Assembly: GCA_913061235.1 (NCBI GenBank)
Contig: CAJXTB010000001.1
Location: 248,001-312,000, forward strand
DNA length: 64,000 nt
Direction: 5' to 3'
DNA from: an uncultured Pseudomonadota bacterium
Lineage (GTDB): Bacteria; Myxococcota_A; UBA796; GCA-2862545
The first letter of the stretch is position 1; every line of letters starts with the position of its first letter. A program made the translations under genes and the position numbers. Below are positions 26,630 to 51,276 of the stretch, piece after piece. The notes under the pieces were generated by a model. That model saw only the letters and a list, made by a program, of their open reading frames with translations. It had not been told where the DNA came from and ran no database searches.

Positions 26630-27067
26630 ATGGAAATCTTCCCGACACCTGCACTCGCTGCTGTGATGATCGTCCCCTTCTTGGTCACCTTCATGGCCTT
26701 GTACGTGATTCTGTTCCGCCCGCTCGTGGCGTACCTAGAAGCACGAGAGAACGCACGTGACGGCGCTCTGCAAGAAGCCAAAGCGCTCGAGAGCCAAGTG
26801 GCCGAGCGCACCGAGGACTTGCAAAAGCGGCTCGAGGCCGCGCGCTCCGAAGTTGTGGCCTTCCGTGCCGCCGAGCGCGCCAAGGCGCTTGAGACGGAAT
26901 CGGAAATCATCGCCGATGCCCGCACCACAGCTGATGCACACATCGGTCGTGCTGTGATCGAAATTCAAGCGTCTGCCGCAACTGCTCGCGAGAGCATCAG
27001 CACAACCGCTTCCACCCTCTCTACCGAAATCGCAGCCCAGGTCCTGGGCCGCGAGCTGTCGGCCTAG
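26630..27067 (+). CDS. atpF: ATP synthase F0 subunit b' (first b-type subunit)
   Basis: A 145-residue stator subunit. One N-terminal membrane helix (AAVMIVPFLVTFMALYVILF) continues into a long charged helix (residues 35-140, rich in Glu/Arg/Ala heptads) that pairs with the second b subunit and reaches delta on F1. It lacks the His-rich export domain of its neighbour. GGAG lies 6 bases before the ATG. It is the first gene of the ATP synthase operon; subunits a and c (atpB, atpE) are not in this window, so they must lie elsewhere. Confidence 0.88.
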   Translation: MEIFPTPALAAVMIVPFLVTFMALYVILFRPLVAYLEARENARDGALQEAKALESQVAERTEDLQKRLEAARSEVVAFRAAERAKALETESEIIADARTTADAHIGRAVIEIQASAATARESISTTASTLSTEIAAQVLGRELSA

Positions 27068-27084
27068 CCATGACAGGACGGACA

Positions 27085-27897
27085 ATGATTCTTCGCAACG
27101 CCATCTTGGCTCTTGCTCTGGTCGCCTCCGGCCCCGCGTTCGCGCAGGACCACGGTGGTGACCATGGCGGCGAACACGCCCCCGCAGACCATGCAGAAGC
27201 CGGCCACGGTGATGCCAACGGTCACGGCTCTGATGGTCATGGCGACGCCCACGGCGACGATGCCGGTCACGGCGAACACCACGACCCAGGCGAATTCTAC
27301 CTAGGTGACGATGACGGCGACGGTACCGCAAACTGGATGGACTCCAGCTACGACGGCACCGAGCGCACCTTCATGGAGCTCTTCAGCTCTGCGGACGACC
27401 CCTACGTTGTCATGGACATCGGCTTCCACGCCCTCCACATCTTCTTGCTTCTGGCGCTGTTGTTCGTCGTGGGTCGCCGTCCAATCGGTGACGCTCTGAA
27501 GAACCGCGCGCTCGGCATCCGCAAGGAGTTGGTCGACTCGGCTCGCGAACGCGACGAAGCCCGGAAGAAGAACGAAGAGCTCGTCGCACGCCTCGGTAAG
27601 TTCGAACGCGAACTCGAAGAGATGCGCGTCACCGCTACTGAAGACGCCAAGCAAGACGCAGCCCGCCTTGTTGAGCGTGCTGAAGCCGAAGCCAAGCGCA
27701 TCGCCGAATCTAGTGAGCGCAGCATCTCGGAAGAGATCCGGCGCGCCAAGGCCAGCCTCCGCAAGGAAGCAGTCGACCTGGCAGTGCAGCTCGCCGAGAC
27801 TACCCTCTCTAAGGAAGTTCAGGCAGACGACCAACGTCGCCTGGCCCGCCAGTTCCTAGACACCCTGACCACTGACGGGGACTCCGCACATGGCTGA
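27085..27897 (+). CDS. atpF: ATP synthase F0 subunit b with exported His-rich N-terminal domain
   Basis: A stator subunit of about 270 residues with an unusual front end. A signal peptide (MILRNAILALALVASGPAFA) is followed by some 47 residues containing eleven His among Gly/Asp/Glu, then an Asp loop (DDDGDGTANWMD). The true membrane helix (ALHIFLLLALLFVVG) comes next, then the normal b-subunit coiled coil of about 140 residues. The extension would face the periplasm. Metal binding, or pH or Ca sensing, is inferred from composition. I chose the ATG at 27085 because of a Shine-Dalgarno (AGGA); an in-frame ATG at 27070 is possible. The 3' end overlaps atpH by 8 bases. Confidence 0.87.
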   Translation: MILRNAILALALVASGPAFAQDHGGDHGGEHAPADHAEAGHGDANGHGSDGHGDAHGDDAGHGEHHDPGEFYLGDDDGDGTANWMDSSYDGTERTFMELFSSADDPYVVMDIGFHALHIFLLLALLFVVGRRPIGDALKNRALGIRKELVDSARERDEARKKNEELVARLGKFERELEEMRVTATEDAKQDAARLVERAEAEAKRIAESSERSISEEIRRAKASLRKEAVDLAVQLAETTLSKEVQADDQRRLARQFLDTLTTDGDSAHG

Positions 27898-28450
27898 CCG
27901 CTCCCTGGCCCGACGCTACGCGCGCGCCTTCATTGAGATTGCAGAAGAGACCAACCAGAGCGAAAAGCTCGGAACGGAACTCAATTCAGCACTCTCCATG
28001 TTCCGCTCACACGACGACATGCTTCTAGAAGCGCTGTCGAATCCCGTGTACACCAAGACTGAACGCAGTGGCGTGCTTGAAGCCGTTCTTCCGAAGCTAG
28101 CCGTCTCCGCTACCGTGAAAAACACGCTGCGCTTGATGCTCCGGAACAACCGCGTCGCTCTACTGCCCATGGTCATGGAAGAATTCCAGTCCTACGCTGA
28201 CCAGCGCGCCAACCGCGCCCGCGTCATCGTAGAGACCGCAGAGCCGCTGACTCCACAGCTTGAAGCTGAAGTCCGCGCCGCTCTGGAAGGCATTACAGGA
28301 AAGACCGTTCTCATCGAGACCCGTGTCAAACCCGAGCTGATTGGCGGCGTTGTCGCCCGAATCGGTGGAAAGGTGTACGACGCTTCGGTCCAAAGTCGCC
28401 TGGCAAATCTCAAGAAAACCCTGCTCAGTTCGGAAATCTCCGACTCTTAG
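27890..28450 (+). CDS. atpH: ATP synthase F1 subunit delta
   Basis: A 186-residue peripheral stalk cap linking the b subunits to the alpha3beta3 head. The family start RSLARRYARAFIEIAEET, the central LRLMLRNNRVALLPMVMEEF, and the C-terminal VKPELIGGVVARIGGKVYDASVQSRL are close to the OSCP/delta consensus, and length is typical. It overlaps the preceding b gene by 8 bases. Its stop codon is directly followed by an intercistronic hairpin. Confidence 0.95.
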   Translation: MADRSLARRYARAFIEIAEETNQSEKLGTELNSALSMFRSHDDMLLEALSNPVYTKTERSGVLEAVLPKLAVSATVKNTLRLMLRNNRVALLPMVMEEFQSYADQRANRARVIVETAEPLTPQLEAEVRAALEGITGKTVLIETRVKPELIGGVVARIGGKVYDASVQSRLANLKKTLLSSEISDS

Positions 28451-28522: not shown

Positions 28523-30049
28523 ATGGACATCCGCGCTGACGAGATCAGCCAGATCCTAAAGCAGCAGATCAAGGACTTCGAGTCCCGCGTCACCGTCTCT
28601 GAGACGGGTACGATTCTCTCTGTTGGTGACGGTATTGCACGTATTCACGGCCTTGAAAACGCTGTCGCCGGAGAGCTCCTAGAGTTCCCAGGCGGCCTGA
28701 AGGGCATGGTTCTCAACCTCGAAGAAGACAACGTTGGTGCCGCACTCTTCGGCTCCGACCAAGGCGTTCACGAGGGCGACGAAGTCAAGCGTACCGGCAA
28801 GATCGTTGAGGTTCCGGTTGGACCGGGCCTGATGGGTCGTGTTGTTGACGCAATCGGCAACCCGGTGGACGGCCTTGGCCCCATCGACGCCGTTGAATCA
28901 CGCCGCGTTGAAATCAAGGCTCCAGGCATCATGCCTCGTAAGTCGGTTCACGAACCGCTTCAGACGGGCATCAAGTCCATCGATGCAATGACCCCCGTTG
29001 GCCGTGGCCAGCGTGAGCTCATCATTGGTGACCGCCAGACAGGCAAGACGGCCGTCGCTATTGACGCCATCATCGCCCAGAAGGTCTTCAAGGACGACCC
29101 GAAGAACAAGGTGCATTGCATCTACGTTGCTATCGGTCAAAAGCAGTCCACCGTGGCCCAGGTTGTTGAGAAGCTCAAGCGTTACGGCGCCATGGAGTAC
29201 ACCTGCGTTGTGACCGCTCCGGCGTCCGATGCAGCCCCCCTCCAGTTCATCTCGCCGTACACCGGCTGCACCATCGGCGAGTACTTCCGTGACAACGGAC
29301 AGCACGCCTTGGTTGTGTACGATGACCTGTCAAAGCAAGCTGTCGCATACCGCCAGCTCTCCCTGCTCCTTCGCCGCCCACCGGGCCGTGAAGCGTACCC
29401 AGGTGACGTCTTCTACGTGCACTCCCGTCTACTTGAGCGCGCCGCCAAGATGAGCGATGCCATGGGAGCCGGTTCTTTGACCGCACTCCCCATCATCGAG
29501 ACCCAAGGTGGCGACGTCTCCGCGTACGTTCCAACCAACGTGATTTCTATCACCGATGGCCAGATCTACCTGGAAACCGACCTGTTCAACGCTGGTCAGC
29601 GTCCTGCTGTGAACGCCGGTCTTTCGGTGTCTCGCGTTGGTGGTGCTGCACAGATCAAGGCCATGAAGGAAGTTGCCGGTTCACTCCGCCTCGACCTCGC
29701 CCAGTTCCGTGAGCTGGCAGCCTTCTCGCAGTTCGCCAGTGACCTCGACGCCGCGACCCAGCAACAGCTGCGCCGTGGAGAGCGTCTGATTGAGCTGCTC
29801 AAGCAGCCTCAGTACGACCCCATCCCCGTCGAAGTTCAGGTTGTTCAGCTCCTGGCCGGTAACGAAGGCATCTACGATGACCTCGAAGTCTCAGAAGTCA
29901 TCCCGTTCGCGACAGCATTGTCCGAGCACTTCCAAGGCAGCAAGAAGGAGCTTCTCGAAGAGATGCTTCGTCTCGGCACCATGAAGAAGGAAGGCCTCAA
30001 GGCTCGGATCATTGAAGAGACCAAGAGCTTCAAGACCACCTGGAAGTAG
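28523..30049 (+). CDS. atpA: ATP synthase F1 subunit alpha
   Basis: A 508-residue non-catalytic nucleotide-binding subunit of the F1 head. The P-loop is GDRQTGKTA (about residues 169-177). Family blocks include [21 protein letters not shown], the alpha signature region [24 protein letters not shown] and [24 protein letters not shown]. Length is normal. GGAG precedes the ATG. Third-position T is noticeably more frequent here (GTT, GGT, CGT) than in flanking genes, consistent with high expression. Confidence 0.98.
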
Positions 30050-30079: not shown

Positions 30080-30970
30080 ATGCCCAATCTGAAGGACATC
30101 AAGACCCGCATTTCGTCGGTCAAGAAGACAAAGCAGATCACCTCGGCGATGAAACTCGTCGCGGGTGCAAAGCTTCGTCGTGCGACCGAGCGGGCCATGA
30201 GTGCACGTCCCTACCGCGCTCAGCTCTCGGACGTCCTCGTCCGGGTAGCGGGCAACGTCGGTGAATCGACGAGCGAGCCCTTGCTTCAGTCACGTCCTGA
30301 CGTGACCAAGATTCTCGTCGCTGTACTGACGACGGACCGCGGTCTGTGCGGCGGGTTCAACAGCAACCTTCTCCGCAAGACTAATCCCTGGTTGAAGGAC
30401 CGGCAGGCAAGCGACATTGATGTCGAAATTGCCGTCTTTGGTCGCAAAGGCTCGGACTTCCTGAAGTCTCGTGGCTTTGACGTCGCAGAGCGTACCCTCG
30501 ACTACGGCAAGACAGAGAAGATGGACCTTGTCCGCCCTCTCACCGCCAAGATGGTCGCCGGCTTCCTCGATGGAACCTACGACGAAGTTTGGATTGTGTT
30601 CAACGAGTTCGTCAATGCCTTGGTGCAGGAACCGACCTTTACGCGCGTCCTACCCATCGCCATTGATGAGTCTGCCACGGAAGTCGCTGACTCGAACCAG
30701 GCGCAAGCCCAGATCGAGTACCGCTACGAGCCTAACGCCGACGGTGTTCTCAAGGCACTTCTTCCGCTGTACTTGCGCACGTTGGTCCTCACCTCCTTCT
30801 TGGAGACTGAGGCCGGTGAGCATGCTGCTCGGATGACCGCCATGGACAACGCGACCCGCAACGCGTCTGACCTCATCGACAGCTTGACCCTCGAATTCAA
30901 TCGCGCCCGTCAGGCCGCGATTACCACCGAAATCACGGAAATCGTGTCCGGTGCCGAGGCCCTCAAGTAG
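30080..30970 (+). CDS. atpG: ATP synthase F1 subunit gamma
   Basis: A 296-residue rotor shaft of F1. The N-terminal helix LKDIKTRISSVKKTKQIT and the C-terminal helix (MDNATRNASDLIDSLTLEFNRARQA) that together form the coiled-coil shaft are both present. The conserved TTDRGLCGGFNSNL lies near residues 90-103. The Shine-Dalgarno is weak (GTGAGAA). Its stop is followed within 5 bases by a hairpin with a TTCG loop that separates it from atpD. Confidence 0.96.
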   Translation: MPNLKDIKTRISSVKKTKQITSAMKLVAGAKLRRATERAMSARPYRAQLSDVLVRVAGNVGESTSEPLLQSRPDVTKILVAVLTTDRGLCGGFNSNLLRKTNPWLKDRQASDIDVEIAVFGRKGSDFLKSRGFDVAERTLDYGKTEKMDLVRPLTAKMVAGFLDGTYDEVWIVFNEFVNALVQEPTFTRVLPIAIDESATEVADSNQAQAQIEYRYEPNADGVLKALLPLYLRTLVLTSFLETEAGEHAARMTAMDNATRNASDLIDSLTLEFNRARQAAITTEITEIVSGAEALK

Positions 30971-31099: not shown

Positions 31100-32563
<1,464 letters not shown>

Positions 32564-48550: not shown

Positions 48551-48618
48551 ACTTCCTCCGCTTGCCGCAACGGGTTCGCGCACGTCCAGCCAGCAGCGGC
48601 AGGATACACTCGCCCTTA

Positions 48619-51276
48619 ATGGACGTCGTCGCCGAGTTCCAAGAGCAGATCAATACATGGGCAACCCTGTACGCGGGTCGCCCACGTAAGGAACTTCGAG
48701 AGTTGTGGTTGGTTGGGTTGGAGCGAGAGAAGCTCGTCACCGTCGCCTACAACCCGAACATCATTGGACCGCGCCTTGTTCGCATGGGCGTACCCGAAAA
48801 CATTGGTGAGCAGGTGGTGCGTGCCATTGGCTGGGCGTGGCGCGACGAGGAGATGCACGCGGTCTATGTGCGCGGTGCACTGCTCCACGAGAGCGCCCTC
48901 CCCCAACGACTTCGCACATGGATGACCCACGCATCGGGGCATGTTGCCGGATGGACCAGTAGCCGCCAGCAACACTACCGCTGGCGAGAAGCTCCCCTGA
49001 CCCGAACCGTCGCCGAGCTGATTGAGTACGCGGGTGTGTTGGGCGGACAAGTCCCCGAAGGTGCCCGTGAACACCTGCACTTCGACAGCTTCCGTGCGTT
49101 CTGTCTGTTCAGCATTGCCGCAGAGACCACCGCTGCAATTGGCTGGGCCCGCATGGTCGAGGTCGGCAAGCTCGCTGGAATCCGCGCAGAAGACATCACC
49201 GCATTCGGGCGCATGGAGCAAGACGAACGCCGCCACGCAGCCATCTTCACGCTGTTGGCAGACGTGTTTGACGACGACGACAGAGTCCGCCCTCACGTCA
49301 CCGAGCTGTGGCTGAAGGCCCGCATTGGTGAGGTCGGCCAACGCTTCTTGGCCACACCCGAGTCCAGCGCAGAAGCCTGGAACAACCCGATTGGCAAAGG
49401 CGCGCCGGTCTACGTGCACCAAGGCAACGCCGCCGAGAGTGCGCAGTCCTGTATGGATGCAGTGCTCGACCGTCTCGGGTTCGATGAGCTGCTGGCCCAA
49501 GCGCCTCGCCACGACGGCCCGGTCCAGGTCGCCATTCGTGCCACCTTCATGCACGGCTACCACCGCAAAGACCCGTCGCCGTACGTGTCGCCACAGCTGT
49601 TGGCCGCCCTCGCCAAGCGATGCGCCCAGGCTGGCGCACAGGTCACAGTGCTCGAGACGCCCAACGTCTACGACCGGTTCTTCCGCGCTAGAGACGTCCA
49701 AAACGTTGCCAACTACCTAGGCTTTGACGACCCCAACTACACGGTCGTAGACGTCACCACCGAGCTCGAGGTTCACCCCTACATTCGCGGTCAAGGACGC
49801 GACTGCATCAGTCGAAGCTGGCGCGACGCCGACGTTCGCATTGCCTTCGGCAAGCTTCGCGGGCACCCCGTCACCGACGCCATGCTCACGCTCGAAGGCG
49901 TTGAAGGGCTCAACGGACGACACGACGACACCCTGTGGGGCGACCGACGCGCCGACCGCACCACGGCCATGTTGATGACATTGGACGCATTCCCACCCGA
50001 CATCGCTCTGCTGGATGCCTGGCGCGACGTGCCCGACGGTCTGCTCGGCATGATGGCTTGCGCCCAGCCTCGACAGCCCTTTCGCCTGTATGGAAGCACC
50101 GATCCGCTGTCGCTGGACATGGTAGTCACGGAGCACATCGGTGGCGCGCTCGAAGACCACAAGCTGATGAACTGTGCAGTGGATTGGTTCGGCGACCCTC
50201 GCCCGTCGCTCACGGTCATCGGCGAAAACACGCCGATCCCTGGGTGGCGTCGCCCGGACCGCACGCGCTTCAGCCGCCTCCTGACGCACCTGGCGGAGCC
50301 CGTCTTCGTCCATGCCAGCGGACGCGGTGCGGCCTTCGTCCCAGACATGGACACTCGCGCCTTTCCGCCAATCACGCCGCCTTCTGCCCCCCTACGATTG
50401 GCCCGCGCCGTGGTGCGCCGCATCATTGGCCAAGAGTCGGCCTCTGAGCCAGACAAGACACTGCTTCCCACGCAGACCCTAGAGATTCGCGGTCACAAGC
50501 TGCGCATGGCCACCGTTGGCCAAGGCCCCCCCGTGGTCTTCCTACACGGCTACCCAGACACGCTGCACGTTGCCGGTCGACTCGCACTTCAGCTTGCCGA
50601 CTCGCACACGGCCTACCTGTTCGACTGGCCAGGAACCGGAAAGAGTGAGCCATGGGGTGGACCGCTTCACCCTGACGCACAAGCCGACCGCTTGCGGGAC
50701 ATCCTAGACGCCTGGGGACTCGACGAAGTGGTTCTTGTGGCCGCCGATATGGGCGGACCACCCGCGCTGTGTTTCGCTGCTCGCTACCCAGAGCGCGTAC
50801 GTGGCGTGGCCGTGTCCAACAGCCTGTTGTTCGATGATGAGCCCACAAGTCCCGAGATTCGCATCATGCGCAAGGCGGGTCTGTCGACACTTGCCTTCAT
50901 GGTGTCGCCGCGCGTCGTCTACCGGCAGTGCAAAGCAACGTTCCTACCCAGCGATTGGACACTGCCCGCGGCCCTGGATGATGACCTGTGGCGCGCCTTC
51001 TCAGCGAGCCCGGTCCGCCGTCACCTGGCCAAGATGTGCCGCGACTATGAGCGCGCCCTGCCCAAGCTGCCACACCGCTACGACGCCGTGAAATGCCCGG
51101 TCCTTGCCCTGTGGGGCGAGAACGAGACGCACTTCCACCGCGCCCATGGCGAGCGCTTGGTGCACGGCCATGCCAATCGCCGCTTGGTAGACGTGGCAGA
51201 TGGCGGACACTGGATGGCCTGGACCCACACCGCACGCGTTGCAACGGCCCTAAACACCTGGTTGGAGGAGCTGTAA
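48619..51276 (+). CDS. three-domain fusion: di-iron ferritin-like + DUF362-like + alpha/beta hydrolase
   Basis: An 885-residue single chain. Domain 1 (about residues 1-265) is a helical ferritin-like fold with a complete di-iron set: E77-x-x-H80, E169 and E203-x-x-H206, probably with E64. Domain 2 (about 275-565) matches DUF362: SPYVSPQLLAALAKRCAQAG, the ADVRIAFGKLRGHPV strand, PDIALLDAWRD and the closing STDPLSLDMVV; its ferredoxin Cys motifs are absent. Domain 3 (about 625-885) is an alpha/beta hydrolase with HGYPD and a nucleophile elbow AADMGG, where Asp710 replaces Ser as in epoxide hydrolases and haloalkane dehalogenases; His864 in GGHW is the base. The stop overlaps the next ATG. An oxygenase-plus-hydrolase role is inferred. 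Confidence 0.8.
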   Translation: MDVVAEFQEQINTWATLYAGRPRKELRELWLVGLEREKLVTVAYNPNIIGPRLVRMGVPENIGEQVVRAIGWAWRDEEMHAVYVRGALLHESALPQRLRTWMTHASGHVAGWTSSRQQHYRWREAPLTRTVAELIEYAGVLGGQVPEGAREHLHFDSFRAFCLFSIAAETTAAIGWARMVEVGKLAGIRAEDITAFGRMEQDERRHAAIFTLLADVFDDDDRVRPHVTELWLKARIGEVGQRFLATPESSAEAWNNPIGKGAPVYVHQGNAAESAQSCMDAVLDRLGFDELLAQAPRHDGPVQVAIRATFMHGYHRKDPSPYVSPQLLAALAKRCAQAGAQVTVLETPNVYDRFFRARDVQNVANYLGFDDPNYTVVDVTTELEVHPYIRGQGRDCISRSWRDADVRIAFGKLRGHPVTDAMLTLEGVEGLNGRHDDTLWGDRRADRTTAMLMTLDAFPPDIALLDAWRDVPDGLLGMMACAQPRQPFRLYGSTDPLSLDMVVTEHIGGALEDHKLMNCAVDWFGDPRPSLTVIGENTPIPGWRRPDRTRFSRLLTHLAEPVFVHASGRGAAFVPDMDTRAFPPITPPSAPLRLARAVVRRIIGQESASEPDKTLLPTQTLEIRGHKLRMATVGQGPPVVFLHGYPDTLHVAGRLALQLADSHTAYLFDWPGTGKSEPWGGPLHPDAQADRLRDILDAWGLDEVVLVAADMGGPPALCFAARYPERVRGVAVSNSLLFDDEPTSPEIRIMRKAGLSTLAFMVSPRVVYRQCKATFLPSDWTLPAALDDDLWRAFSASPVRRHLAKMCRDYERALPKLPHRYDAVKCPVLALWGENETHFHRAHGERLVHGHANRRLVDVADGGHWMAWTHTARVATALNTWLEEL

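What the first reader, a model, noticed from the sequence alone, without database searches (positions are those of the whole stretch)
27085..27360. Exported His-rich domain on ATP synthase subunit b
One of two b subunits carries a signal peptide, then eleven His in about 47 residues with Gly/Asp/Glu, then an Asp loop, before its membrane helix. This would place a metal-binding-like or proton-buffering segment on the periplasmic face of F0, next to the proton entry path. Standard b subunits have almost nothing there.
Basis: partly seen in the sequence, partly recalled or inferred. Interest (0 to 1): 0.65.

Follow-up and report, generated by a model that had tools for sequence, protein, structure and literature searches.

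The report
ATP synthase stator with periplasmic metal-binding-like tail
In a little-known, uncultured group of bacteria, one stator subunit of the ATP-making motor carries an exported tail rich in histidine and aspartate plus a strongly conserved calcium-binding-like loop just outside the membrane, which suggests that metal ions or protons are handled right at the motor's periplasmic face.

Summary
The second b-type subunit of the F0F1 ATP synthase operon (ATG 27085, stop 27897) has a 20-residue signal peptide ending AFA|QD, 11 His in the next 47 residues, an Asp loop (DDDGDGTANWMD, 27307-27342), then the b membrane helix. The frame and the b'-b-delta gene order recur in relatives. The emphasis needs correcting. 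His-rich exported b tails are common elsewhere in this phylum (10 of 33 sampled b subunits, 6 of 21 other families). What is special is the Asp loop: in 17 of 18 readable b subunits of the same family it keeps oxygen donors at all five side-chain positions (1,3,5,9,12) of an EF-hand/thrombospondin-type calcium loop, although the tails scramble and identity to the window protein is only 33-48%. No other sampled family has it; a degenerate scan of 84,980 species found it in b only in twelve MAGs, apparently of this family. Best reading: an exported stator tail with one Ca2+-type site next to the membrane and a disordered His/Asp-rich segment near the proton inlet. Metal binding and any effect on the motor are inferred, not shown.

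The parts
26630..27067 (+). b' subunit (first of two b-type genes), no signal peptide, only a few residues before its membrane helix
   Evidence: PF00430 E 2.6e-7; NCBIfam best match is subunit B'
27085..27897 (+). b subunit with exported N-terminal tail (270 aa from ATG 27085; ORF can also start at ATG 27070)
   Evidence: PF00430 E 2e-17; start choice from Shine-Dalgarno-like AGGA
27085..27144 (+). signal peptide, cleavage predicted AFA|QD
   Evidence: sequence; hydrophobic stretch plus AxA site also in most relatives
27145..27285 (+). His-rich tail: 47 residues, 11 His, no Lys or Arg
27307..27342 (+). Asp loop DDDGDGTANWMD, calcium-type Dx[DN]xDGxxNxxD motif (residues 75-86)
   Evidence: conserved in 17 family members, oxygen donors at positions 1,3,5,9,12 in all
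27415..27483 (+). single membrane helix of b (approximate)
   Evidence: PF00430 match starts at residue 114; AlphaFold long helix from residue 106
27890..28450 (+). delta (OSCP) subunit, overlaps the b gene by 8 bases
   Evidence: PF00213 E 7.9e-45
28523..30049 (+). alpha subunit
   Evidence: ORF and sequence; name from recognisable sequence, not from a search here
30080..30970 (+). gamma subunit
   Evidence: ORF and sequence; name from recognisable sequence
31121..32563 (+). beta subunit
   Evidence: ORF and sequence; name from recognisable sequence

Best explanation
This is the b subunit of the cell's only detected F0F1 ATP synthase, with an exported N-terminal module. Shown by sequence: signal peptide, low-complexity His/Gly/Ala/Asp tail, one conserved Dx[DN]xDGxxNxxD loop, then the normal b helix and coiled coil; the partner b' lacks the module, so one tail per complex is expected. 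Inferred: Sec exports the tail and signal peptidase trims only the signal peptide. The loop binds one Ca2+ and orders the chain just before the membrane helix, bracing b against the periplasmic H3-H4 loop of subunit a. The flexible His/Asp-rich part, free of Lys and Arg, hangs near the proton inlet as a weak proton buffer or transition-metal binder.
For: Loop: D1, G6 and D12 invariant, D/N/T at 3, D/N at 5, N/S/D at 9 in 17 sequences, while position 4 is free (H, G, A, K, S); D75, G80, D86 are invariant columns in A1 where mean column identity is 42%. The same genome has 55 thrombospondin-3 repeat matches with near-identical loops (DLDGDGVANLDD, DVDGDGIANTND, DLDNDGVPNESD). Dx[DN]xDG loops bind Ca2+ in at least 16 unrelated contexts, most of them not intracellular (PMC3123361). 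Tails: mean 18% His, 0.6% Lys+Arg, 19% Asp+Glu, versus about 7% His and 6% Lys+Arg after codon-position shuffles. In Bacillus PS3 the H3-H4 loop of a contacts b near the periplasmic side and may touch b's N terminus (PMC6377231). A His-rich extension of subunit a from an ice worm raised ATP synthesis when moved to E. coli, as reported in PMC12796488.
Against: No binding data. AlphaFold gives the loop only about 50-61 pLDDT, and Rigden et al. note that the motif does not normally appear in disordered regions. Neither TSP_3 nor EF-hand Pfam models match. One family member (L092) lacks both long tail and loop and has an otherwise normal b, so the module is dispensable there. Lys/Arg avoidance may only reflect the positive-inside rule.
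Confidence: 0.5

Rival explanations
1. The His-rich tail is the functional part: a transition-metal (Zn, Cu, Ni) or proton-buffering antenna at the inlet; the Asp loop is a linker.
For: His enrichment recurs in many families that lack the loop and exceeds base-composition expectation. Precedents for metals and His-rich extensions at F0: zinc-type cap on subunit a in P. aeruginosa, zinc proposed in Polytomella, ice-worm a extension (PMC12796488).
Against: Within the family the loop is conserved and His number is not (L028 keeps the loop with 2 His, L010 with 3). The P. aeruginosa metal site is on the cytoplasmic side and on subunit a.
Confidence: 0.25
2. The module is an assembly or anchoring device: signal peptide and tail ensure N-out insertion of b, and the tail binds cell wall, lipid headgroups or another periplasmic protein through Ca2+ or His.
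For: Signal-peptide-like leaders precede b across the class and also subunit c, so use of the export machinery looks ancestral; a long polar N-tail would need Sec.
Against: No partner gene found; very short tails suffice in most relatives.
Confidence: 0.15
3. Mostly neutral low-complexity expansion by replication slippage in a high-GC genome.
For: Tails in L007, L008, L011 and L022 are made of near-perfect short repeats; tail length ranges from 21 to 113 residues.
Against: Does not explain the loop (17 of 17 ligand sets kept) nor the His excess and near absence of Lys/Arg relative to shuffles.
Confidence: 0.1

Closest known systems
F-type ATP synthase subunit b (PF00430), e.g. Bacillus PS3, E. 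coli, P. aeruginosa
   Same: membrane helix, long stator coiled coil, operon position before delta
   Different: solved b chains match only from the membrane helix on (profile positions 90-102 onward); none carries an exported tail with this loop
Dx[DN]xDG calcium loops (EF-hand, thrombospondin type 3, dockerin)
   Same: 12-residue spacing of oxygen donors, Gly6, acid at 12
   Different: single isolated loop, no Cys, no repeat array, no Pfam match to TSP_3 or EF-hand
Metal-capped subunit a of P. aeruginosa and His-rich C-terminal extension of ice-worm subunit a (PMC12796488)
   Same: metal or His-rich element added to an F0 subunit near a half-channel
   Different: subunit a, not b; the P. aeruginosa site is cytoplasmic
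His-rich exported tails on b subunits of other families in the phylum
   Same: signal peptide plus His/Glu/Asp/Gly tail before the b helix (e.g. L155, L165, L167)
   Different: no Asp loop in any of the 33 sampled

Membership tests
F0F1 ATP synthase subunit b | PF00430 core over the curated cut-off | tested here: met
   63.8 bits vs 28; all 16 members match
F0F1 ATP synthase subunit b | gene order b'-b-delta-alpha in the main operon | tested here: met
   window ORFs; b' and delta flank b in relatives (b' not seen at the short L003 contig end, delta not listed for L010)
F0F1 ATP synthase subunit b | single N-terminal membrane helix, N-out | tested here: inconclusive
   helix and signal peptide predicted from sequence and AlphaFold; topology not measured
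Dx[DN]xDG calcium-binding loop | D/N at 1,3,5, Gly6, oxygen donor at 9, acid at 12 | tested here: met
   17 of 17 loop-bearing sequences, allowing one Thr at position 3
Dx[DN]xDG calcium-binding loop | Ca2+ is actually bound | not testable with these tools
   needs a binding assay
Dx[DN]xDG calcium-binding loop | loop sits in an ordered structural context | tested here: inconclusive
   AlphaFold pLDDT about 50-61 in the loop
Thrombospondin type 3 repeat (PF02412) | match to the family model, tandem repeats with Cys | tested here: not met
   no TSP_3 match listed for the window protein at E up to 5, nor among the 25 most frequent families over 16 members; single loop, no Cys

The most novel reading that the evidence does not exclude
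A calcium-responsive F0 stator: occupancy of the periplasmic loop changes how b holds subunit a or how the proton inlet is gated, so periplasmic Ca2+ tunes ATP synthesis, with the His tail adding pH or metal sensing.
Probability: 0.12. Interest if true: 0.82.

Novelty: new variant of a known kind. Interest (0 to 1): 0.55.

Why it matters
ATP synthase is one of the most conserved machines, and its stator b subunit is not known (to me, and in the papers searched) to carry a periplasmic metal-site module. A clade that has kept a calcium-type loop next to the membrane across 13 genera, with a His/Asp tail near the proton inlet, gives a direct test of whether local buffering or metal ions influence proton entry in F0, a question raised by recent high-resolution structures. 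It also shows that exported b tails are a widespread, apparently undescribed trait of this phylum.

Tried and rejected
Late start (translation after the tail): rejected, since frame, leader and loop are conserved and the gene abuts b' and delta. Loop as a Pfam domain: no TSP_3 or EF-hand match. Short-peptide searches of the PDB gave only chance-level matches, one of them calmodulin site 1 (E 0.93). AlphaFold on two family members did not give a confident loop. Subunit a of the same genomes: no signal peptide or N-terminal extension that would pair with the b tail, and the loop-less genome G001 has an ordinary-looking a. c-ring sequences keep the Glu and a Q...ES pattern; not enough to call Na+ or H+. 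Literature searches for signal peptides or His-rich tails on b subunits found nothing relevant; most subscription papers are missing from that library. One table script stopped with an error after families f1 and f2; only its f1 and f2 rows are used, and its L008 row is an artefact of a truncated contig.

Full report
OBSERVATION. The ORF at 27070-27897 (+) encodes a 275-aa protein (270 aa from the better start, ATG 27085) whose residues 114-241 match the ATP synthase b family PF00430 at 63.8 bits. Upstream of that core are a 20-residue signal peptide (MILRNAILALALVASGPAFA|QD), a 47-residue stretch with 11 His and no Lys or Arg, and the loop DDDGDGTANWMD at 27307-27342, followed after about 25 residues by the membrane helix. 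The first gene of the pair (26630-27067) is a b' subunit with almost nothing before its helix; delta follows with an 8-base overlap, then alpha, gamma and beta. The genome has one detected copy of this b; a and c lie elsewhere, at C9:183207-184098.

IS IT REAL CODING SEQUENCE AND RETAINED? Searches of 58 relatives and 71 class members and reading the N termini show the same order, hydrophobic leader, tail, loop, helix, in 17 b subunits of the same family from 13 genera (one, L008, is cut by a contig end before its leader). b' is directly upstream and delta directly downstream in these loci (b' not seen at the short L003 contig end, delta not listed for L010). Length differences keep the frame. 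ATG 27085 has an AGGA six bases upstream, ATG 27070 does not. The AxA site lies before the tail, so cleavage would leave the tail attached.

WHAT IS CONSERVED. In the alignment of 16 family members (identity to the window protein 33-48%) the invariant columns include D75, G80 and D86 of the loop, with N83 and W84 at 90% or more. Over 17 sequences: position 1 D (17), 3 D/N/T (14/2/1), 5 D/N (14/3), 6 G (17), 9 N/S/D (15/1/1), 10 W/F (16/1), 12 D (17); position 4 is H, G, A, K or S. That is the ligand pattern of the EF-hand-type Dx[DN]xDG loop, in which side chains 1, 3, 5, 9 (through water) and 12 and a backbone oxygen at 7 hold Ca2+ (Rigden et al. 2011, PMC3123361). The same genome holds 55 thrombospondin type 3 repeat matches, with loops such as DLDGDGVANLDD and DVDGDGIANTND, so a loop of this type was at hand in the lineage; whether the b loop came from one is unknown. 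Pfam TSP_3 and EF-hand models do not match the b subunit, so it is a motif, not a member of those families.

DISTRIBUTION. The phylum name Myxococcota is therefore my inference. A tree of b cores puts 17 family members, including the loop-less L092, in one clade (100/99), with L092 nested inside it, which reads as one gain and one secondary loss; L028, which has the loop, is unresolved. Family f2 of the same order has His repeats (3-8 His) but no loop. In the rest of the phylum nearly all sampled b subunits have a signal-peptide-like leader and a short polar tail; 10 of 33, in 6 of 21 families, have 5 or more His, none has the loop (tails delimited by eye). So the His-rich tail is recurrent, the loop is clade-specific.

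COMPOSITION TEST. In 15 family tails the mean is 18% His, 0.6% Lys+Arg and 19% Asp+Glu; shuffling bases within codon positions gives roughly half the His and several percent Lys+Arg, and the other reading frames give 2-4% His. Base composition or slippage alone does not explain this, although repeats in L007, L008, L011 and L022 show that slippage supplies the length. The lack of Lys and Arg could also follow from the positive-inside rule for exported segments (established knowledge).

MECHANISM. Shown: architecture, export signal, conservation. Inferred: the loop binds one Ca2+ and stiffens the chain at the membrane surface; the tail is a flexible His/Asp segment that can buffer protons or bind transition metals near the inlet. 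In the Bacillus PS3 structure the periplasmic H3-H4 loop of subunit a touches b near the periplasmic side and may reach b's N terminus, and that loop is proximal to the periplasmic half-channel (PMC6377231). Which side of a the tailed b occupies here, relative to b', is not known. Precedents that ions or His-rich additions matter at F0: a zinc-type ion capping the cytoplasmic channel of P. aeruginosa subunit a, zinc proposed in the periplasmic-side half-channel of Polytomella, and a His-rich extension of ice-worm subunit a that raised synthesis in E. coli, all as described in PMC12796488. AlphaFold models are confident for the helix (over 90) but not for the tail (about 40) or loop (about 50-61), so structure prediction neither supports nor excludes a folded site. 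No solved b chain covers the extension.

VERDICT. A real, clade-conserved variant of subunit b. The finding stands, with the emphasis moved from the His stretch to the calcium-type loop, and with the note that His-rich exported b tails are widespread in the phylum. I found no description of either in the papers searched, a limited library.

Noticed in passing
L063, L061, L067, L071, L072, L073 and others (subunit c genes): Subunit c precursors of this class also begin with a signal-peptide-like leader (e.g. ...LLAVSTSAFAQDGDYSDSK).
   Followed up: partly
L047 and other subunit a loci: Subunit a proteins end in short His/Asp-rich C-terminal tails (PHSEDDHH, PHVAHDDGAHGHESH, PHGHHDDDHAH), reminiscent of the ice-worm extension.
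   Followed up: no
L015, L022, L029, L095, L122 (family f2): b subunits start with a very short 9-12 residue AxA leader (e.g. MFGISPAFA), followed in some by His tails with HEGAA-type repeats; unclear whether such a leader works as a signal peptide.
   Followed up: no
genomes G009, G011, G013, G015: No subunit a or c gene was found although b is present; two of these genomes are 94-97% complete. Could be assembly gaps or loss.
   Followed up: no
window 48562-51276 (+): 904-aa ORF that reads like a fusion of a ferritin-like part, a middle domain and an alpha/beta hydrolase.
   Followed up: no
own genome C31, C54, C13, C17: Proteins with long arrays of thrombospondin type 3 repeats (55 matches in the genome).
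   Followed up: partly
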